From positions 43,030-107,029 of the forward strand of contig JBHIEG010000002.1 in assembly GCA_046760505.1 (NCBI GenBank): a stretch of DNA of 64,000 bases. Reading direction: 5' to 3'. Positions 12,697 to 34,311 of this stretch are shown here, piece by piece. Position numbers and translations under genes: made by a program. The stretch comes from CAYFZR01 sp046760505 [NCBI: Candidatus Hydrothermarchaeota archaeon]. Lineage in GTDB: Archaea > CAYFZR01. How positions within the stretch are numbered: the first letter of the stretch is position 1; the number at the start of each line of letters is the position of its first letter. Below the pieces are notes generated by a model. The model worked only from the letters and a program-made list of their open reading frames with translations, made no database searches and was not told the DNA's origin.

Positions 12697-13454
12697 GGCT
12701 AGAGAACATCTCAAAGGTATTCGTTGACGAAGATGGAGAAGAAGTTCTGGCCTTAAAGAATGTTTCATTTGAAGTTAATGACGGCGAATTTGTTTGTATT
12801 GTAGGTCCAAGCGGATGCGGTAAGACAACTCTACTTAGAATAGCAGCTGGCTTAGAAAAACCCACTGCTGGGAAGGTATATTTAGATGGAAAAGAGGTAA
12901 AAGGTCCTGGCTCGGAAAGAGGAATGGTTTTCCAAGAATATGCTCTTTTTCCCTGGAGAACTGTTAAAAAGAATATAGAATTTGGTCTTGAATTGAAAAA
13001 TGTACCTAAAAAAGAAAGAGAAGAAATCATAAAGAGATACGTCGATCTGGTAGGGCTCAACGGATTTGAAAGCAGTTATCCTCATGAACTATCGGGTGGC
13101 ATGAAGCAAAGAGTCGCTTTAGCGAGAGTCCTAGCAAACGATCCCGATGTTCTCTTGATGGACGAGCCTTTTGGTGCTTTAGATGCTCAAACGAGAAATG
13201 TGATGCAGGAAGAATTGCTGAGAGTATGGCAAAAAGCAAGAAAAACCGTCCTTTTTGTAACCCACAGCGTGGACGAAGCTGTTTATCTAGGTGATAAGGT
13301 AGTTGTCCTTACCGCAAGACCAGGAGAGGTTAAAGGTATCTTTGAGATCAATGTCCCGAGACCCAGGAATAGAACTGCCTGCGAACCCATTGTGCTTACA
13401 AGGGCAAAGATCCTTGATATACTAACGGAAGAAGTTAAAAAAACCCTGATTTAG
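12660..13454 (+). CDS. ABC importer ATPase, SsuB/TauB-like
   Basis: A 264-residue ATP-binding subunit. Walker A is GPSGCGKTT near residue 50, the Q-loop is VFQEY, the signature is LSGGMKQR, Walker B is [11 protein letters not shown] and the switch His is in VTHSVDEA. It powers the permease above. The ATG at 12660 overlaps the permease by 37 bases. An alternative is an ATT in [13 protein letters not shown], nine bases after GGAGGT, which would fit family N-termini better but needs a rare start codon. It ends in a 4-base overlap with the convergent S-layer-like gene. Confidence 0.92.
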
Positions 13455-14992
13455 GCTTTAAACAAAATTATTTCGGCTGTTTTTGAGTCTATCCACCTGA
13501 CGTGAATTAAATCGTCTCTCAACTTTGAGACATAGTCATACTTAGATAAAACTATAGAACCTGCTCTCGTCCCGTATCTGTCGCTTCCTGCCACCACAAC
13601 GATATCGCCATCTCCCAAAGGTTTTTCTAGGTAAGCTATAATCCCTTCTCCAGGCTTCATCTTGTTAAAGTCTACTTTTAACTTGCCTTTTTCAATCAAA
13701 AGTTTGGTTATTTCATTTGCTTCGGGTCCGCCCACTAAGACGAGATTTTTATCGTATAATTCTTTTTCGCTTAACTCGTCGTCCAATCTTGCTACAGGCT
13801 CGACAAATCTGAATTCTCCAGTCTGTCTTTGCAGTGTCAAGGTTTCACCAATTTTGGCTTCGTATACTTCTTCATCTATCCTAAGATCCACGTAATCTTT
13901 ATGAATTTTTTCAAGCAAAATTTTAGAGCCAAATTCTATCTCATCTCCCTCTTCAAGTTCTACTCTTTTTTCTCCCAATCTCTCAACATGCCAACGAGCA
14001 AGATCATCTATGCGCTCATCAAAGACTATTTTAGTTCCATCAATAAATTTGACGTAATCATTCTCCTCCAATAACTGAGCAGTTTTCTTAATTAATGATA
14101 TCTCATCTTTTTTTAGGACGTACTCATAACCCGCGTCAAAATCGTCTCCGTCGTATATTCTCCTATCTTTCTGGTAAACCCTTATCTGGGCCTTGTAGTC
14201 TCCAACTACTGATCTAAAAGTACCCAGAAGCTCAATATAAATGTCTTCATAATTGAAAGGTCTTTCTAATCTTATTACGTCTTCAATCAGTAACTTATCA
14301 TGCTTGTAAAGTCTAAAGGATGCGGACTCGGTCCTCGTATTAATTCCAGTTATCTCTAATTGGTATCCATCGAATGATTTCGTTTGATGTAGCGGTATGA
14401 GATCCTCTAATAATATCTTTCCGGTCGTCATATGCTCTTCTGGCTCGTAATCAACCAAATAAAGTTCTTTATCCAATATCTTAATCCTCGTTGGCAACAA
14501 GTTATATACATTATCAGAAAACTCTAAAGTATAGGTAAAATCATCCACTTTCAATTCTCTGCCATCATATTTTATTCTAAAAGAGATTTTTTCTTTCTCT
14601 TCGAATTCTTCTTTATTTTCTGTTTCCAATTTAATTTCCTTTAAGGAAGGTAACTCCTCCTGAGTAAGCTCCTCAAGTCTGTATCCGTTCTTCTCGATTT
14701 TTCTATCAGTTGAGGAAACAGCAGCCTCTATATGCAATTCTGCCGTATCGCTGTCTATATCAATTAATTCAAGGGTCCCTATTTTCTTCCATGTGCTGAG
14801 AAAATAGAATCCCTTTATTATGTTTATTGCACTTATTGAATCCATGGGGGGGCTATTTTTCCCTATAACTATAATCGAGTTCTGTTCACTTCCCTTTACG
14901 AAAGGGCTCGGATAATCTGAGAGATCGTAGGCAAATGAGGATGAAAGCAGGCAAGGTATCAGGAGTGAGATGATGAGTAATCTTAGGTTCAT
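13451..14992 (-). CDS. Secreted S-layer-like protein
   Basis: A 513-residue exported protein with a clear signal peptide ([21 protein letters not shown]). The mature start, [20 protein letters not shown], and the C-terminal [18 protein letters not shown] match the flanking domains of methanogen-type archaeal S-layer proteins. The middle is beta-rich and highly acidic. No C-terminal membrane anchor is visible. I chose the ATG at 14992 because AATTATATAC at about 15014-15024 sits 25-30 bases upstream, as for a leaderless message; an in-frame ATG at 15013 lies next to that TATA box. It could be the main surface-layer protein or a minor relative. Confidence 0.65.
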
Positions 14993-15036
14993 GGAGGAAT
15001 ACAACTCAACCATGTATATAATTTTAATGTTTCTAA

Positions 15037-26026: not shown

Positions 26027-26902
26027 ATGAAATACGCTCCACACATATTTTTCATTTTAATTATTTCTTTCACATCTGTTGCCTTTTCACAGTCCATAAG
26101 TGTGAGTTCAAGTTACCCTGATTTCATAGCTCAGGGTGACAAAGGTGTAGTCCTTTTAACCATTAAAAACGATTTTGATAAACCCAGAGAAGTATCTATT
26201 TTCATTCATACATCTGCTTTTGATGTAATCGGGCACAATCCGGTTAATTTTACGATCCTCCCTATGACAACGAAGAGCGTTCCATTCGTTCTAACACCAG
26301 TAAAAGAGCCTGGTTACTACAAGGTAGACGTCATAATTAGCGTAGACAATAAGATAAAGGGACAAGAATTCTACATAGAAATAAGGAAACCGATGATGGT
26401 AATCAATTTTCCAAGAATTGCCATTTTCATACTGTTTATTTTTGCCTTCTATCTTGTACTTGCTTTTTTAAGGGGAGAATCATTAAGAAAAGAGTTCAAC
26501 GAACTCGTTAAGTCTCTTGTTTTTGCATTGGCCCTTTATTTTGTATTAAGCAGTTTATTAACTTATGCTTTTAATTCAGATACACCCATAGTCGCTGTTG
26601 CGTCAGATAGCATGGTTCCGACATTAAATAGGGGGGACGTTTTGTTTGTAAAGGGAGGAGAAGACATAAATGAAGGAGATATTATAGTTTACAGAAGTCC
26701 GGTTGGAAACATACCGATTATCCATAGGGTTATAAAAGTTAAAGACAACCAGACATATATAACTAAAGGAGATGCGAATCCAGCACCAGATCCATGGGAG
26801 GTAAAGAAAAGTTGGGTAACCGGCAAGGTAATTATGATAGATCATAGACCCCTTCTCATTCCATGGATCGGTAAGTTGCGTTTGATCCTCTCTGGCTTGT
26901 GA
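26027..26902 (+). CDS. Signal peptidase I fused to an N-terminal Ig-like outer domain
   Basis: A 291-residue membrane protease with an unusual layout. Residues 1-21 form a signal peptide. About 22-120 make a beta-sandwich domain like those of archaeal cell-surface proteins (GVVLLTIKNDFDKPREVSIFI, PGYYKVDVIISVD). Two membrane helices follow (about 130-148 and 163-182), then the S26 peptidase domain with catalytic Ser in SDSM (S195), the archaeal catalytic His in IIHRVI (H233) and Asp in TKGD (D249). All three residues are present, so it is probably active. The outer domain might recruit substrates. It starts after AGGTGATTGG. Confidence 0.85.
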   Translation: MKYAPHIFFILIISFTSVAFSQSISVSSSYPDFIAQGDKGVVLLTIKNDFDKPREVSIFIHTSAFDVIGHNPVNFTILPMTTKSVPFVLTPVKEPGYYKVDVIISVDNKIKGQEFYIEIRKPMMVINFPRIAIFILFIFAFYLVLAFLRGESLRKEFNELVKSLVFALALYFVLSSLLTYAFNSDTPIVAVASDSMVPTLNRGDVLFVKGGEDINEGDIIVYRSPVGNIPIIHRVIKVKDNQTYITKGDANPAPDPWEVKKSWVTGKVIMIDHRPLLIPWIGKLRLILSGL

Positions 26903-27318: not shown

Positions 27319-27903
27319 TTATTTTAAGTTTCTTATTCTAAATAAATCCGGATAAAATAAAAAAATCATGCCCAGAGAGATTAAGATTAGAGATATCCAA
27401 AATAGTTTAAGATGTATCCTAGATGAGAGAATTATGAAATCAAATATGAAAAGAATTATCCCCAAATGCAATAGACCAGAGCCAAGCTGTAGGGTAAACC
27501 CGATCTTCTTAAAAAATAGTTTCTTTCTTTGAATCAATGCAATTATCAAATACAATTGAATCGTCAATAAAACAATAAAAAGGAATGCAAGAGCGAATTT
27601 TAAATCGTAAATGGAAATAAATAAGGTTGATACTAAAATTAATGAGATTATTCTGATAATTTTCTCGTAAAAAATTCTTTTTGGAATGCAAATTCCCAAA
27701 AGGATGACTATGACCAGTATAAAGGGTAAAGATAACTTGGTCAGATGCTGAACGTAATTATCATATAACGGAGTCTGTTCCCAGTTCACAAACCTCAAAC
27801 TGTATGTATGCCCTAGGATAACACCGTAGAAAAAGACAATTCCCAGTAAGAATAGTACACAAAACGTAATCTCTTCTAGGCTTTCATGGATTCTTTTATG
27901 CAT
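27319..27903 (-). CDS. CcmF C-terminal half-like membrane protein
   Basis: A 194-residue protein with six membrane segments. LQLGSGLLHLGIILFIF near residue 140 resembles the second-half CcmF motif in which a histidine binds heme. It follows, with an 8-base overlap, a protein that matches the first half of CcmF. I therefore read the pair as a CcmF split into two chains, as is known in some archaea and plant mitochondria. On its own the similarity is weak; the call rests on gene order and the His motif. Confidence 0.55.
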   Translation of the reverse strand: MHKRIHESLEEITFCVLFLLGIVFFYGVILGHTYSLRFVNWEQTPLYDNYVQHLTKLSLPFILVIVILLGICIPKRIFYEKIIRIISLILVSTLFISIYDLKFALAFLFIVLLTIQLYLIIALIQRKKLFFKKIGFTLQLGSGLLHLGIILFIFDFIILSSRIHLKLFWISLILISLGMIFLFYPDLFRIRNLK

Positions 27904-28825
27904 AGGTGTGAACTCCTTTTACGTAATATGAGATAAGGAATGTAAAAATCAAAGAAATGTAACAAAATATTGCAACGCCTGCGATTACTTTTTTGTTCCT
28001 GTTTGTCAATCGAAGATGTAAGTAACCAGTGTAGAATAACCATAGCATTATGGAAGCGTTTATTTTTGGAGAAAACCACCATTTTTCGTCTTTCCATGCT
28101 TCAATTGCCCATGGATAACCAATTAGTAATCCTATGGTTAGCAAAAAATATCCAAACTTCGCGTAAGAAATCGCTGTCTGATCTCCTTTATCTTTAATCA
28201 ATACCAGGCCAGACATGGAAAAATTCAAAAAAAGCGATCCATAAGAAGCAAATAACAAAGGTGGATGTATCCACATGTAGGATGAGTTGTAATAGTAGAT
28301 CGCCTTTGAATAAAGGCGGGAATACGCATAGAATATTGTCTGATAATCGTAGTAAGCAGCATGAGAAGATTGAATAACCCAACCGTACAACTCTTTAGAA
28401 AAATTTGGAAGTGGTTCCAGAAATGGATTTGAGTATATGCATACGATCAATGTAAAAATCGCTATTGGAATGCTAGCTGCAATTTTTTCTTCTCTTTTAA
28501 TTGGAATCGAGAGTAAGACTGCGATAAAACACCAAAAGTACAATTTTTCGTTTTCAATCCATAGAGGAATCTTAAATCTAAAGTAAAAGTCGGAATAAGG
28601 ATTTTTAATTATCAACTGGGATATTTTATAGTGAAAGAATGCCAAGAAGATGAATCCGAGTAAAAAAAGAGAAGCATGTATGTATAGCGGTATTTCCGAC
28701 TTAGATTTTTTTAAAGAAAAGAAAATAAGAGAAAATGAGGACAAAATAAGTAAAGGAGTTAAAATTTCTCCAAAACCTATGGTTAGATCAAGGATCTCCA
28801 TGTAATTAGCCCATAGTGTAGACAT
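27896..28825 (-). CDS. ccmF: CcmF/CcsA-type cytochrome c heme lyase subunit
   Basis: A 309-residue protein with about eight to nine membrane segments. It aligns with the central part of CcmF: NPFLEPLPN, then MWIHPPLLFASYGSL (heme-binding His), then WAIEAWKDEKWWFSPKINAS in the place of the tryptophan-rich WWD segment that presents heme, then LHLRL. The WWD motif is divergent, with SPK for WDP. The role is to deliver heme to CxxCH motifs outside the membrane, which fits the three multiheme cytochrome genes 3-5 kb away. The rest of the Ccm machinery (ABCE) is not in the window. Confidence 0.78.
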   Translation of the reverse strand: MSTLWANYMEILDLTIGFGEILTPLLILSSFSLIFFSLKKSKSEIPLYIHASLFLLGFIFLAFFHYKISQLIIKNPYSDFYFRFKIPLWIENEKLYFWCFIAVLLSIPIKREEKIAASIPIAIFTLIVCIYSNPFLEPLPNFSKELYGWVIQSSHAAYYDYQTIFYAYSRLYSKAIYYYNSSYMWIHPPLLFASYGSLFLNFSMSGLVLIKDKGDQTAISYAKFGYFLLTIGLLIGYPWAIEAWKDEKWWFSPKINASIMLWLFYTGYLHLRLTNRNKKVIAGVAIFCYISLIFTFLISYYVKGVHTYA

Positions 28826-30340: not shown

Positions 30341-31036
30341 ATGGCTATTCCAGAAAAATTGAAAGAAGCAGATAAAATACTGTACGTTGAAATGGCATTC
30401 GGAGTGCTCCTACTTTTTTTTGCCATATACGGTATAGTTAACGCCTTTGATTATTTTGCCTCCGCATGGATGGGTCACATGGGAGACAGACTTGTTAGCA
30501 GGAGTGAAATTATTCCGTTTTGGAGAAGCGCCTTGGCTTCATGTGTGAGAATGGTTATTGTCGCCTTCATAGGAGGAGTGCTCACCGCTCACTCAGCGAT
30601 AGGTATTTTCGGAGAAGAAAGGTTATATGGACCCATTGCATCTGCGATGGAACAGATTACGTCAAAAGAGAGAAGTGGTAAGATAAAAATATCCGACGGT
30701 ATTTCTTTTATAACGGCTAAACTACACCGAAAAAACGCTCCGAGAACTGTTAATGCTTTATTAAATAAATTGCCATTATCGGTTGAGAAAGTCGAAGTGT
30801 ACAACGACAACGTTTTACTTTTAAATTTTGAACTTGATGTTGAAGGTGAAAACCAACGGATAACCATAAAAAATGGAGAAATAGGTTATATACCAGAGTT
30901 AAAACAAATTTGCATTGCAATCAATGAGGAAAGGATGATTTCCCCGGTGAATATAATCGGTAAAGTGGAAGAAGGAGATGCTTCTGCTCTACAAATAGAT
31001 AGAGGACTATCTATTAAAACATCGATGGTGGAATAA
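30341..31036 (+). CDS. Hypothetical membrane protein with soluble C-terminal domain
   Basis: A 231-residue protein. Two membrane segments lie near 15-40 and 66-86, followed by a beta-rich soluble domain of about 130 residues that contains repeated short strands (KVEVYNDNVLLLNFELDV). No motif recognised. It is ten bases after the zinc-ribbon membrane gene and seven before the next small membrane gene, so these three probably form one operon. Confidence 0.6.
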   Translation: MAIPEKLKEADKILYVEMAFGVLLLFFAIYGIVNAFDYFASAWMGHMGDRLVSRSEIIPFWRSALASCVRMVIVAFIGGVLTAHSAIGIFGEERLYGPIASAMEQITSKERSGKIKISDGISFITAKLHRKNAPRTVNALLNKLPLSVEKVEVYNDNVLLLNFELDVEGENQRITIKNGEIGYIPELKQICIAINEERMISPVNIIGKVEEGDASALQIDRGLSIKTSMVE

Positions 31037-31042
31037 TGATAG

Positions 31043-31252
31043 ATGGATAAAGACATTAGGATCTTAATAATCCTCCTCTGCATTATTATTGGTTTTTTGA
31101 TTTTAAGAGGTGTGGGATTTATACTTGCTGGCACATCTCTCATCATAATCTTTGGTTTCTCTCATCATCATTCTACCCTAACTTACATTCTTGAAGTACT
31201 CGGGATAATGTTCGTATTGTATGGAATAATAAGACTATACAGGGAGATTTGA
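31043..31252 (+). CDS. Small membrane protein, 69 residues
   Basis: Two membrane helices with a short loop containing HHHS. No family recognised. It is the last gene of the three-gene run from 29954 and overlaps the tail of the opposing signal-peptidase-like gene by 18 bases. Confidence 0.5.
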   Translation: MDKDIRILIILLCIIIGFLILRGVGFILAGTSLIIIFGFSHHHSTLTYILEVLGIMFVLYGIIRLYREI

Positions 31253-31657
31253 TAGAAAAATCTTTAATCTACCAACCTTTGGCAGTTTCACAATATGATT
31301 CTCGATGGTATAAAGTTTTCCAGATATCTTTGTGTTTTGAATTAAAAATGGACCCTTTAAACGACTTTTTCCTGAAATCGGATAGCCGACTAAATAGACC
31401 TTCCCCTTAATATCCAAGACCTCCATAATCACAGGAAAATTCATATCTACCACAACAAAATCTCCTTTTTTAATATTTATCGGACTTTCTACCAGCAGAA
31501 TGTCACCACGATTTATAATCGGGCTCAGTAAATCATTTTCTTGAATATAAAAAGGTCTTTCAGTATTTAAAGCAATTACAAACGAATTAAAAATCACAAA
31601 AACAAGCAATATGCCGGATACTATAATTTTGATAAGTAACTGTAACTCTTTGCTCAT
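31235..31657 (-). CDS. Signal-peptidase-like protein without catalytic residues
   Basis: A 140-residue protein with an N-terminal membrane helix and the S26 signal peptidase fold (PIINRGDILLVESPINIKKG matches the region after the catalytic Ser). Aligned with the active paralogues, the catalytic Ser becomes Leu (ENDLLSP in place of SDSMVP, L43), the His becomes Met (VIMEVLDI for IIHRVIKV) and the Asp of TKGD becomes Tyr (VGYP). The frame is intact, so it may be a non-catalytic partner rather than a decayed gene. It lies downstream of tetraheme cytochrome A on the same strand. Confidence 0.7.
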   Translation of the reverse strand: MSKELQLLIKIIVSGILLVFVIFNSFVIALNTERPFYIQENDLLSPIINRGDILLVESPINIKKGDFVVVDMNFPVIMEVLDIKGKVYLVGYPISGKSRLKGPFLIQNTKISGKLYTIENHIVKLPKVGRLKIFLSNLPV

Positions 31658-31824: not shown

Positions 31825-31837
31825 GGGGCTGAGCCCC
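31825..31837 (-). terminator. Hairpin terminator after tetraheme cytochrome A
   Basis: GGGGCTGAGCCCC, a perfect 6-bp stem with a single-base centre, 14 bases beyond the cytochrome stop. On the minus strand it is followed within a few bases by AAATTTTT. It would end or stabilise the cytochrome message. Confidence 0.55.
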
Positions 31838-31851
31838 TTTTGTGCAAAGAA

Positions 31852-32511
31852 TTATGTCTTACTTGTTACTGTCCAACTGAACGACTGATTTGCTACGTAT
31901 CCACTACCCCAAGTCACAGTATCGGTTTGTGCATTGTATGTTATATTGAAGCCCATTTTATTAGTCCACGTGATTCCTACGGGTACTTGCGTATGACATG
32001 TTACACATCCCCTAGAAGTGTTACTCATCTGGTTCAGTGCGATCTTCGCATCAGAAGCCCAACCCATGCTACCGGTTGCGTTTCTTACCATAGGTCCGTG
32101 AGCACTAGAGTTAAGCCAGAGAACTCTGTTTGAGTAACCTGCTGCATCCCCTTTTATGTGACATCTCGCACAATCCGAATATGTTACATTGTGGCCGTGA
32201 ACACTTACAGAAGGATCGTAAGAGCCGGCATCCATGCCTTCAGTCGAATGGCACCACATGCAAGCAGTGTTGTTAATATTGCTAGCGTTCCAGTGGGGGA
32301 TTGTCCCGCTACCAGCAAAATCGGCCGAGGCAGCCTCCGTTGCCTCTGCTGAATGACAACTCCTACATTTTGGAATAACCCACGTGTGACTCCCTTGATA
32401 CCTTGCTAGGGTAGATGGTATTGCTACGAAGACTATTAGTACCAGCAGAGCAAGCAATAATGCAAATGCAGCTAACCTTCTCCTTGCCCTCCTCCTCATG
32501 TATTCCGCCAT
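31852..32511 (-). CDS. Surface tetraheme cytochrome c (A), possible nanowire subunit
   Basis: A 219-residue exported cytochrome. A basic N-terminus and one membrane helix (13-32) lead to a possible cleavage site around STLA. Four CxxCH motifs lie at 49-53, 84-88, 114-118 and 169-173. Non-motif histidines H42, H73, H105/H107 and H138 could be the second axial ligands. Eight N-glycosylation sequons and a beta-rich tail of 45 residues follow. Four hemes, this size and heavy sequons fit the archaeal extracellular cytochrome filament proteins, but the assignment is inference. GC content is visibly higher than in neighbours, with a strong TATA region, GAGGTGA and a hairpin terminator, suggesting high expression. 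It is a paralogue of the protein encoded at 33165. Confidence 0.85.
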   Translation of the reverse strand: MAEYMRRRARRRLAAFALLLALLVLIVFVAIPSTLARYQGSHTWVIPKCRSCHSAEATEAASADFAGSGTIPHWNASNINNTACMWCHSTEGMDAGSYDPSVSVHGHNVTYSDCARCHIKGDAAGYSNRVLWLNSSAHGPMVRNATGSMGWASDAKIALNQMSNTSRGCVTCHTQVPVGITWTNKMGFNITYNAQTDTVTWGSGYVANQSFSWTVTSKT

Positions 32512-32528
32512 GTAAGTTTCACCTCGCT

Positions 32529-32562
32529 ATATTATATATTAAAGCGATCCATATATATAATT
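32529..32562 (-). promoter_or_regulatory. Tandem TATA region of tetraheme cytochrome A
   Basis: On the minus strand AATTATATATATGG and, further on, TTTAATATATAATAT give two TATA candidates about 45 and 25 bases before the ATG. The GAGGTGA ribosome site (32519-32525) implies the upstream one is used, with a leader of about 20 bases. Confidence 0.55.
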
Positions 32563-32621
32563 TTTGATAGATATATCTACGCATTTGCTCCAAACACCGG
32601 TGATGGACGAAATATAGGTCG

Positions 32622-33161
32622 TTAACGTCTGAATAAAGATAATTTGATGATTCTTGAAAATGCCTGCAGAGATCTAAATGCATCTCTCTTCCTTTTTTCC
32701 AGATCCGGTTTGCTTAACTTGTACTTTGTAAGAAAATTACCTTTTGCGACGGATAACTTTTCCATAAGAAGATCAGGAGTCCTTAAAAGTCCTACCCACG
32801 GAATACGTTCGACAACCTTACCTTCAATAGCCTCAAATGGTATGAAACCATCATCCATAGGAACGTTGTCTCCTTTGGTTATCACACCTCCTTCTTTTAT
32901 ATTTATGATTCTGTGGGTAACAGTAGTTTTTCCTGATTTATAAACGACTATATCTCCTACGTTAAGACTTCTCTCATCAACGTCTTTGTAAACGACGATA
33001 TCTCCCATCTTTAGTGCAGGTACCATACTCTCGCTTGAAACGTATGAAAAATCGTAGAGATAAAAGACAATGAGTGTGAGGCCAATCAGCAGTAGAACAA
33101 CTGTTAAAGGGACGTACCTTCCTATAGACTTAACCTTTCTAGATAAATACCGTCGCCGCAG
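32622..33161 (-). CDS. Signal peptidase I (Sec11-type), apparent CUG start
   Basis: A 179-residue protease: a basic N-terminus (RRRYLSRKVK), one membrane helix (about 18-36), the catalytic Ser in SSESMVP (S45), His in VTHRII (H83) and Asp in TKGD (D98), then a basic helical tail of about 50 residues. The first ATG lies at the Met right after the catalytic Ser, so it cannot be the start. Upstream to the in-frame TGA the only candidate is CTG at 33161, just after GGAGAGGATGA. The gene follows tetraheme cytochrome B with no gap and may process the cytochromes. Confidence 0.8.
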   Translation of the reverse strand: MRRRYLSRKVKSIGRYVPLTVVLLLIGLTLIVFYLYDFSYVSSESMVPALKMGDIVVYKDVDERSLNVGDIVVYKSGKTTVTHRIINIKEGGVITKGDNVPMDDGFIPFEAIEGKVVERIPWVGLLRTPDLLMEKLSVAKGNFLTKYKLSKPDLEKRKRDAFRSLQAFSRIIKLSLFRR

Positions 33162-33164
33162 ATT

Positions 33165-33581
33165 TCATCCTCTCCATGTAAAGTTGACCTTTACATCGGT
33201 ATGGCATGCCATACAGCCTTCTGATCTAGTCAATTGGCTGTGTATGCTGTTGTTTAGAGATTTAGATTGGTTAGTTCCACTATGGCAATTCATGCATTCT
33301 GTCAGAGTTACGTTATGGCCAAATTGGTGACATTCTTTGCATTGAGTTTGATTTATTTCGGTAAAGTAATAATGAGGCCAGATAGATGATTTTGTTTTAT
33401 TTAATTCCTCAACAATGTCTACGTGACAAACAACACAGTTTGGACTAGATATCCATGTGTGGGAACCCATGTACCTCGATAGGGTTGTTGGCAAAAGCAA
33501 TAAGGCGATTAAAATGATTAATGAAAATGCTGCAAATATTTTAACCGTTTTCCTCAAGAATGATTTTCCCACATAGATCAC
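33165..33581 (-). CDS. Surface tetraheme cytochrome c (B)
   Basis: A 138-residue exported cytochrome, a shorter paralogue of that at 31852. The membrane helix spans about 13-32, then SRYMGSHTW (ARYQGSHTW in the paralogue). CxxCH motifs are at 49-53, 81-85, 96-100 and 123-127. The non-motif histidines H41, H70, H89 and H114 match those of the paralogue one for one, so each heme could be bis-His ligated. Six sequons are present, but the long beta-rich tail of paralogue A is missing. The GTG start overlaps the stop of the preceding cytochrome gene (GTGA). Confidence 0.85.
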   Translation of the reverse strand: MIYVGKSFLRKTVKIFAAFSLIILIALLLLPTTLSRYMGSHTWISSPNCVVCHVDIVEELNKTKSSIWPHYYFTEINQTQCKECHQFGHNVTLTECMNCHSGTNQSKSLNNSIHSQLTRSEGCMACHTDVKVNFTWRG

Positions 33582-34201
33582 CTGAGTAGGGCTATAAAAT
33601 CATGCCAGAATGATAGATCAAAAATCTTATTTATAGCATCTCTAATCGTGGGTGATTTAATTTCATATCCAACTGGGGTCTCAGGTTTAATTTCTTCTAT
33701 TTTTTCACTTTTTCCATGACATGCATCACAAGGCTTTTTATTCTCATGTATTCCATGCAAGTCCTCACCATGACATGCTATACAGTTATTCAATGGTTTG
33801 TAAATTTCCTCTTCACCACCGTGGCATCTTACGCAATCCACACTTATGTGTATCTCATGAGGATTAGACCCGTGACACCTCCAGCACAATTCTTTATTTC
33901 CGGAATGGGCTTTTTTATAATCATGACAAGCACACCTTATTCTCTCAAAACTCTTTGGAGAGTGGCACCAGTTGCAATCATGGATAGGGTTATCCAAATG
34001 AAACCAAGAAATGCCTATGTCGTATCTCTCATGACATGTCCTACAGTAAGTATCGAAGTGATCAGGATTGAAATGGGGTATCCTCTTGGAGAAATCCAAA
34101 TTGCTATGGCAAGAAAGACAGTTCCTGCCCCTAAATTCAAGTCTTGTTAAACTTGGTGCGATCAAAAGGACCATGATGATAAGAGCTACAAGTTTTTTCA
34201 T
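33578..34201 (-). CDS. Multiheme cytochrome c, seven CxxCH plus one CxCH
   Basis: A 207-residue exported cytochrome with a signal segment at 1-20. CxxCH motifs are at 28, 53, 76, 106, 123, 140 and 158. At 90-93 there is RCACH, that is CxCH, placed where an eighth heme motif would be expected. The last 40 residues carry no heme motif and end SFWHDFIALLR. The density (one motif per 20 residues) is like bacterial NrfH/CymA-type or octaheme carriers. I chose the ATG at 34201, about 30 bases after a minus-strand AGATATATG; a GTG at 34225 is less likely. It heads an operon with tetraheme cytochrome B and a signal peptidase. Confidence 0.85.
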   Translation of the reverse strand: MKKLVALIIMVLLIAPSLTRLEFRGRNCLSCHSNLDFSKRIPHFNPDHFDTYCRTCHERYDIGISWFHLDNPIHDCNWCHSPKSFERIRCACHDYKKAHSGNKELCWRCHGSNPHEIHISVDCVRCHGGEEEIYKPLNNCIACHGEDLHGIHENKKPCDACHGKSEKIEEIKPETPVGYEIKSPTIRDAINKIFDLSFWHDFIALLR

Positions 34202-34311
34202 ATAAAATAAACTATACTGAGACACGCATATATCTTACGGTGTTCTCAGTAGTTTACTGAGGCATCACCTTTTTGGTTTACAATCTCTCACTAAATATTC
34301 CAAATTAGTAT

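What the first reader, a model, noticed from the sequence alone, without database searches (positions are those of the whole stretch)
31852..33581. Two paralogous, heavily sequoned tetraheme cytochromes: candidate archaeal cytochrome-nanowire subunits
The proteins at 31852-32511 and 33165-33581 share a basic N-terminus, one membrane/signal helix, the RY-GSHTW motif, and four CxxCH motifs with the first at residue 49 in both. Four non-motif histidines sit at matching places (GSHTW; PH; GHNVT; AH or IH), enough for bis-His ligation of every heme. They carry eight and six N-glycosylation sequons. Established knowledge: tetraheme cytochromes form glycosylated extracellular filaments in Pyrobaculum calidifontis and Archaeoglobus veneficus. 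Copy A also has higher GC, a strong promoter region and a hairpin terminator, as a highly expressed filament protein might. That this pair polymerises is inference.
Basis: partly seen in the sequence, partly recalled or inferred. Interest (0 to 1): 0.82.

Follow-up and report, generated by a model that had tools for sequence, protein, structure and literature searches.

The report
Paired archaeal cytochrome-nanowire protein genes
An archaeon carries two related genes for sequon-rich, four-heme proteins that resemble a protein known to assemble into electron-carrying filaments outside the cell, next to genes that look like their processing machinery; the family is known, and the unusual part is a long copy paired with a short one.

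Summary
ECN-A (31852-32511, 219 aa) and ECN-B (33165-33581, 138 aa) each have a signal helix, four CxxCH, four matching extra histidines, and eight and six sequons, the two highest densities of 58 window genes. A two-sequence profile finds the A. veneficus nanowire subunit AvECN (8E5G) at E 8e-12 over 224 of 262 residues; mature parts alone give 1.5e-6, next chain 0.013. Similarity beyond heme motifs lies at both ends; the middle of A is no better than shuffles. Published work places such tetrahemes (MmcX) in ANME-1, ANME-2d, Syntropharchaeales and Archaeoglobales (PMC11176372): a new member of a known kind. Polymerisation was not shown; AlphaFold2 failed (pLDDT 34-35). I favour A as filament subunit and B as minor, perhaps basal, subunit. 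Codon usage does not support high expression of A, and ranks B above A.

The parts
31852..32511 (-). ECN-A: AvECN-like tetraheme c-type cytochrome, 219 aa; signal helix, GSHTW, four CxxCH, eight sequons, C-terminal tail of 37 residues beyond the point where B ends. Proposed major filament subunit.
33165..33581 (-). ECN-B: short paralogue, 138 aa; four CxxCH and the four matching His, six sequons, ends soon after the last heme site (TDVKVNFTWRG). Proposed minor or basal subunit.
33578..34225 (-). Multiheme cytochrome, 215 aa: seven CxxCH plus one CxCH (residues 98-101), no sequons; GTG start at 34225 or ATG at 34201; its end overlaps the ECN-B start by 4 nt. Proposed electron-feeding partner near the membrane.
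   Evidence: role is inference
32622..33161 (-). Intact archaeal/Sec11-type signal peptidase, about 179 aa, directly after ECN-B; no ATG/GTG/TTG start in frame ahead of the active site (probable CTG at 33161, or a sequence indel).
31235..31657 (-). Signal-peptidase homologue downstream of ECN-A with the three catalytic motifs replaced (NDLLSP, IMEV, GYPIS).
26027..26902 (+). Second intact archaeal signal peptidase, with about 160 extra N-terminal residues.
27896..28825 (-). Larger part of a probably split CcmF/CcsA-like heme lyase (Cytochrom_C_asm).
27319..27903 (-). Overlapping downstream membrane protein (about seven hydrophobic segments), possible second part of the split CcmF.
   Evidence: (no family); inference from position
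32512..32621 (-). Upstream region of ECN-A with TATA-like AT-rich boxes and a GAGGTG ribosome-binding site.
   Evidence: read by eye
31825..31837 (-). GGGGC-TCA-GCCCC hairpin after ECN-A; weak as a terminator.

Best explanation
This is an archaeal extracellular cytochrome nanowire (ECN) locus of the AvECN/MmcX kind. Shown: A and B are paralogues; both match AvECN best among solved proteins; each has four heme sites, the four extra His needed for bis-His ligation, and a signal-type helix. Inferred: both are exported, glycosylated and cleaved by the adjacent signal peptidase, with hemes attached by a CcmF-type lyase. Inferred: A polymerises outside the cell, with distal His ligands partly given by neighbouring subunits as reported for AvECN, and carries electrons to an outside acceptor or partner. 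Inferred and weaker: B, co-encoded with a sequon-free 7-8-heme cytochrome, is a minor subunit that starts or caps the filament and hands it electrons from that cytochrome.
For: A+B profile against the solved chains: 8e5g E 8.1e-12 over chain residues 6-229 (best stretch alone 1.5e-10), next chain 0.015; mature parts 1.5e-6, next 0.013. Single searches, whole-sequence E: A 2.9e-4, mature A 0.0032, B 1.5e-6. Controls: one kept-motif shuffle each of A and B does not hit 8e5g at E<=10; the neighbouring multiheme cytochrome does not hit it at E<=1. Against AvECN with shuffled spacers: A whole 0 of 2,000, A mature 2 of 2,000, B whole 0 of 2,000, B mature 32 of 2,000 (local scores). Stretch after the fourth heme motif, A against AvECN: score 67 against 26.8+-5.6, 0 of 5,000. 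hhalign of the A+B alignment with AvECN: probability 98.2%. Sequon density 1st and 2nd of 58, three positions shared. Papers: in AvECN three of four hemes take a distal His from another subunit (PMC12203936, passages); AvECN has a large C-terminal beta hairpin (PMC11976967, passages); MmcX, an AvECN homologue, is exceptionally highly expressed in its host (PMC11176372, passages); signal peptidase and CcmF paralogues beside cytochrome genes recur in ANME archaea (PMC9012536, section 24).
Against: No structure: pLDDT 34.4 and 35.3. The similarity to AvECN is uneven: between GxHxW and the last heme motif A is no better than kept-motif shuffles (1,473 of 2,000 reach it) and B only slightly (122 of 2,000 reach it); without the tail, mature A is reached by 81 of 2,000; the tail beyond the point where B ends is reached by 182 of 5,000. 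Most of the signal thus sits in the N-terminal part and just after heme 4 (VPVxIxW), part of which B keeps. In the single searches no one stretch is strong: best stretch E 0.15 for A and 0.0028 for B, and for mature A the alignment is out of register by one heme (12-179 on 80-230). A beta hairpin is also described in pentaheme cytochromes that the passages do not call filaments. Codon usage ranks the multiheme cytochrome (5) and B (10) above A (43 of 58), the opposite of a major/minor reading, though the measure is weak. A shows some similarity to the multiheme cytochrome (2 of 2,000). No close relatives could be compared.
Confidence: 0.62

Rival explanations
1. Both are small tetraheme shuttles or surface cytochromes that stay monomeric between membrane and S-layer, of the same stock as AvECN but not filament-forming.
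For: Generic Cytochrome_C7 model passed by both and class III cytochrome model passed by B; AvECN-related pentahemes not described as filaments (PMC11976967, passages); weak similarity to AvECN in the heme-bearing middle; filament formation untested.
Against: For B, AvECN (1.5e-6) and PcECN (7e-4) outrank the best other chain (3ouq, a cytochrome c family protein, 0.019) and all chains named c3 or c7 (0.21 or worse). Sequon density points to exposure outside the cell.
Confidence: 0.25
2. A and B both polymerise, into separate homopolymers used under different conditions.
For: Both keep all heme sites and the matching His; B is linked to the cytochrome and peptidase genes while A has its own upstream region (read). 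Geobacter makes three different cytochrome filaments (PMC12203936, passages).
Against: B lacks A's tail; its linkage to a multiheme cytochrome fits an accessory role as well.
Confidence: 0.2
3. Membrane-anchored NapC/NrfH-type quinol dehydrogenases passing electrons to a partner cytochrome.
For: NrfH model TIGR03153 matches B at E 9e-7 (29 bits) and A at 9e-5 (22.5 bits); one N-terminal hydrophobic helix in each.
Against: Far below the curated cut-off of 134.2 bits; the N-terminal parts of A and B match the C-terminal end of the model (86-134 of 138), out of register; Cytochrom_NNT 17.7 bits for A against a cut-off of 24.1.
Confidence: 0.04

Closest known systems
AvECN of Archaeoglobus veneficus (F2KMU8, PDB 8E5G)
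   Same: Signal helix, P-S/T-T then GxHxW near the mature start, four CxxCH, extra His, VPVxIxW after heme 4 (A; partly B), sequons.
   Different: A is shorter (219 against 262 aa) and 29% identical in the alignment; the heme-bearing middle of A is not similar beyond the motifs; B is 138 aa without a tail; two copies here.
MmcX of Ca. Serpentinarchaeum (Met12) and its clade in ANME-1, ANME-2d, ANME-2, Syntropharchaeales, Archaeoglobales (PMC11176372, passages)
   Same: Four CxxCH, signal peptide, AvECN homologue.
   Different: Its sequence was not compared here; the passages read mention no long/short paralogue pair.
PcECN of Pyrobaculum calidifontis (A3MW92, PDB 8E5F)
   Same: Tetraheme archaeal nanowire; weak sequence match to B (E 7e-4).
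   Different: 385 aa chain; match to A not significant (0.35).
CcmF and signal peptidase clusters beside multiheme cytochromes in ANME archaea (PMC9012536, section 24)
   Same: Split CcmF paralogues and a signal peptidase are reported with cytochrome genes.
   Different: There the CcmF2 clusters accompany large S-layer cytochromes; here small ECN-type ones. No tree was built to name the CcmF group.

Membership tests
AvECN/MmcX-type extracellular cytochrome nanowire | Sequence homology to AvECN | tested here: met
   Best-ranked solved chain for A, B, A+B profile and mature profile; uneven along the chain, mainly at both ends.
AvECN/MmcX-type extracellular cytochrome nanowire | Four CxxCH and at least four further His for bis-His ligation | tested here: met
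AvECN/MmcX-type extracellular cytochrome nanowire | N-terminal export signal | tested here: met
   One hydrophobic helix after a basic start in each; cleavage itself is inferred.
AvECN/MmcX-type extracellular cytochrome nanowire | C-terminal beta-hairpin tail | tested here: inconclusive
   A: tail present, weakly similar to AvECN's (182 of 5,000 shuffles reach it); strands predicted in the model's blocks of mean pLDDT 46-58 only. B: absent.
AvECN/MmcX-type extracellular cytochrome nanowire | Polymerisation with distal His ligands from other subunits | not testable with these tools
   No complex or heme prediction; both monomer models failed.
AvECN/MmcX-type extracellular cytochrome nanowire | Extracellular location | tested here: inconclusive
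   Sequon enrichment fits; no direct evidence.
NapC/NrfH tetraheme quinol dehydrogenase | Score above the curated model cut-off | tested here: not met
   TIGR03153 29.0 (B) and 22.5 (A) bits against 134.2.
Cytochrome c3/c7 soluble carriers | Best match among solved proteins | tested here: not met
   AvECN ranks first for both; the generic c7 Pfam model is nevertheless passed by both.
OmcS/OmcE/OmcZ bacterial nanowires | Sequence homology | tested here: not met
   None of their entries among the 5, 21 and 5 sequences listed at E<=10.

The most novel reading that the evidence does not exclude
The locus encodes a two-subunit nanowire: a major glycosylated filament cytochrome (A) and a tail-less paralogue (B) that seeds or caps the filament and joins its heme chain to a membrane-side 7-8-heme cytochrome, with a dedicated signal peptidase and a catalytically dead homologue as export or assembly factor. 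It would give a concrete base for an archaeal nanowire and show how electrons enter a cytochrome filament.
Probability: 0.2. Interest if true: 0.72.

Novelty: new member of a known kind. Interest (0 to 1): 0.45.

Why it matters
How cytochrome filaments are started, anchored and fed with electrons is open: the structures known are described as homopolymers (PMC11936953, passages), and the roles of these filaments in respiration are called an outstanding challenge (PMC12954529, section 6). A short locus with a likely filament subunit, a tail-less sister, a linked multiheme cytochrome and its own signal peptidase gives named candidates for base, cap and processing enzyme that can be expressed and tested.

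Tried and rejected
AlphaFold2 of mature A and mature B, each with a two-row alignment: pLDDT 34.4 and 35.3. No fold search was made, since such models would give meaningless matches.

Homologue searches: genome contigs with B gave 31 candidate stretches and 5 weak bacterial loci, 24-34% identical over the heme-bearing part (1 Phycisphaerales, 4 Acidobacteria), not followed up. Viral contigs: A, 2 stretches and no relative; B, one 1,029-base contig with a 15-residue match, dropped as uninformative; the three-row alignment, 28 stretches and no relative. Plasmids: B, 28 weak records, 20 listed, best E 0.03; A, none. Phages: B, none; A was not searched there.

NrfH/NapC and c3/c7 membership considered and rejected (membership table). 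High expression of A from codon usage: not supported, rank 43 of 58, below B (10) and the multiheme cytochrome (5) (a reference of two ATPase genes, ranked 7 and 8 themselves, so the measure is weak). Intrinsic terminator after A: not supported. My first reading that A's whole tail matches AvECN's strongly was weakened on re-testing: the strong part is the stretch just after heme 4, part of which B keeps.

Taxon: not determined. Archaeal by topoisomerase VI and V/A-type ATPase (recognised by eye), archaeal signal peptidase and S-layer models and archaeal prepilin peptidase. A lineage near Archaeoglobi, ANME or Syntropharchaeia is a guess from papers on MmcX and CcmF only.

Claims about what is or is not in print rest on 8 searches of the open-licence library. 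The primary nanowire paper (Baquero et al. 2023) is not held, so a published description of such clusters or short paralogues cannot be excluded.

Full report
Observation. Both genes exist as described. Each protein has four CxxCH with the first at residue 49, a shared RY-GSHTW segment near the expected mature start, and four extra histidines in shared alignment columns. The heme motifs are far beyond chance (0 of 20,000 shuffles in each). Sequons exceed shuffle expectation (8 against 3.1, P 0.004; 6 against 1.8, P 0.002), and the two proteins have the highest sequon densities of the 58 window genes I listed (3.65 and 4.35 per 100 residues, mean 0.50). Three sequons share positions between the paralogues, among them the one right after a probable heme ligand (GHNVT). 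The paralogy is solid (z 12.7 on mature parts with heme motifs held in place, 0 of 2,000).

Identity. Among the solved chains the best match for A, B, the two-row profile and the mature profile is 8e5g, which papers name as AvECN, F2KMU8 of Archaeoglobus veneficus (PMC12954529 and PMC11936953, passages). The mature profile gives E 1.5e-6 over chain residues 30-229; the next chain, another multiheme protein, has 0.013. One heme-motif-preserving shuffle of each protein does not find 8e5g at E<=10, and the neighbouring multiheme cytochrome does not find it at E<=1. P. calidifontis 8E5F matches B weakly (7e-4) and A not significantly (0.35).

How even the match is. Against AvECN with shuffled spacers (heme motifs kept; local scores), whole A and whole B are reached by 0 of 2,000 shuffles, mature A by 2 and mature B by 32. 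Split up, the middle between GxHxW and the last heme motif carries no signal in A (1,473 of 2,000) and little in B (122 of 2,000); mature A without the tail is reached by 81 of 2,000. The signal sits in the N-terminal part (hydrophobic helix, P-S/T-T, GxHxW) and just after heme 4 (A TQVPVGITWTNK, AvECN TYVPVKINWTHK; B TDVKVNFTW). In the single searches the best single stretch has E only 0.15 for A and 0.0028 for B, and the mature-A alignment is shifted by one heme. I read this as distant homology, well supported by the profile but not by any one stretch.

Difference between the copies. After the fourth heme motif A continues for 46 residues and B for 11. A's whole post-heme stretch matches AvECN's (score 67 against 26.8+-5.6, 0 of 5,000); the 37 residues beyond the point where B ends match only weakly (182 of 5,000), with one sequon aligned (A N189, AvECN N207). 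A published comparison describes a large C-terminal beta hairpin in AvECN (PMC11976967, passages). AlphaFold2 put strands in this part of A, but at block pLDDT 46-58 in a model that failed overall. B is followed at once by the signal-peptidase frame, so it is not visibly a frame-shifted longer gene.

Surroundings. On the minus strand the order is: multiheme cytochrome (seven CxxCH and one CxCH, no sequons), ECN-B overlapping it by 4 nt, a signal peptidase, a gap of 110 nt, ECN-A, and a signal-peptidase homologue. The signal peptidase at 32622-33161 matches TIGR02228 above its cut-off even in the shorter reading (63.8 against 51.85 bits) and human SEC11A (E 1.5e-5), with the SESMVP, THR and KGDN motifs kept; its start is unusual, CTG at 33161 after a GGAGAGG box being likeliest. 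The homologue at 31235-31657 has NDLLSP, IMEV and GYPIS at these places, so it is probably not a peptidase. (That these motifs carry the catalytic Ser, His and Asp is recalled, not from a call.) About 3 kb beyond ECN-A lie the larger part of a probably split CcmF/CcsA-like protein (E 2e-19) and an overlapping multi-helix protein, then a third, intact signal peptidase on the other strand. ANME genomes are reported to have split CcmF paralogues, and a signal peptidase near cytochrome genes (PMC9012536, section 24), so the setting has precedent.

What is known. In AvECN three of four hemes take their distal His from another subunit (PMC12203936, passages). MmcX, a tetraheme AvECN homologue, is one of two exceptionally expressed genes of its host, and its clade (three to five heme motifs) is reported from ANME-2d, ANME-1, ANME-2, Syntropharchaeales and Archaeoglobales (PMC11176372, passages). 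Highly expressed three-heme cytochromes are reported from thermophilic ANME-1c (PMC9539880, passages). So this locus is a new member of a known kind. Ca. Alkanophaga genomes are reported to lack multiheme cytochromes (PMC10322722, passages), which speaks against that lineage as the source.

Mechanism. Most likely A is exported, heme-loaded, cleaved, glycosylated and assembled into an outside filament. B, tied by gene overlap to a sequon-free multiheme cytochrome, is most simply a minor subunit at the filament's base or end, or a link between that cytochrome and A. The first part rests on homology; the second on gene layout and the missing tail, and is inference. Against it: no structure, no expression data, no relatives with the same layout seen here, and codon usage that ranks B (10) and the multiheme cytochrome (5) above A (43 of 58).

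Limits. No whole genome is held for the window, the genome-collection scan gave only distant bacterial loci, and no archaeal relatives could be fetched. The taxon was not determined.

Noticed in passing
31235-31657 (-): Signal-peptidase homologue with all three catalytic motif positions replaced, directly downstream of ECN-A.
   Followed up: partly
33159-33161 (-): The signal peptidase 32622-33161 has no ATG/GTG/TTG start ahead of its active site; CTG with a good ribosome-binding site, or a sequence indel, is likely.
   Followed up: partly
33923-33934 (-), residues 98-101 of the cytochrome 33578-34225: A CACH (CxCH) site amid seven normal CxxCH sites: possibly an eighth, unusual heme site.
   Followed up: no
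31852-32511 and 33578-34225 (-): A shows some similarity to the 7-8-heme cytochrome beyond the heme motifs (z 3.9, 2 of 2,000), B does not (532 of 2,000).
   Followed up: no
27319-28825 (-): CcmF-like heme lyase probably split into two overlapping genes, as reported for ANME and Ferroglobus.
   Followed up: partly
13451-15013 (-): S-layer protein with an S_layer_C outer domain but no sequon, in contrast to the sequon-rich cytochromes.
   Followed up: no
30341-31036 (+): Protein with an N-terminal hydrophobic stretch and a cyclophilin-like domain between the heme lyase and the cytochromes.
   Followed up: no
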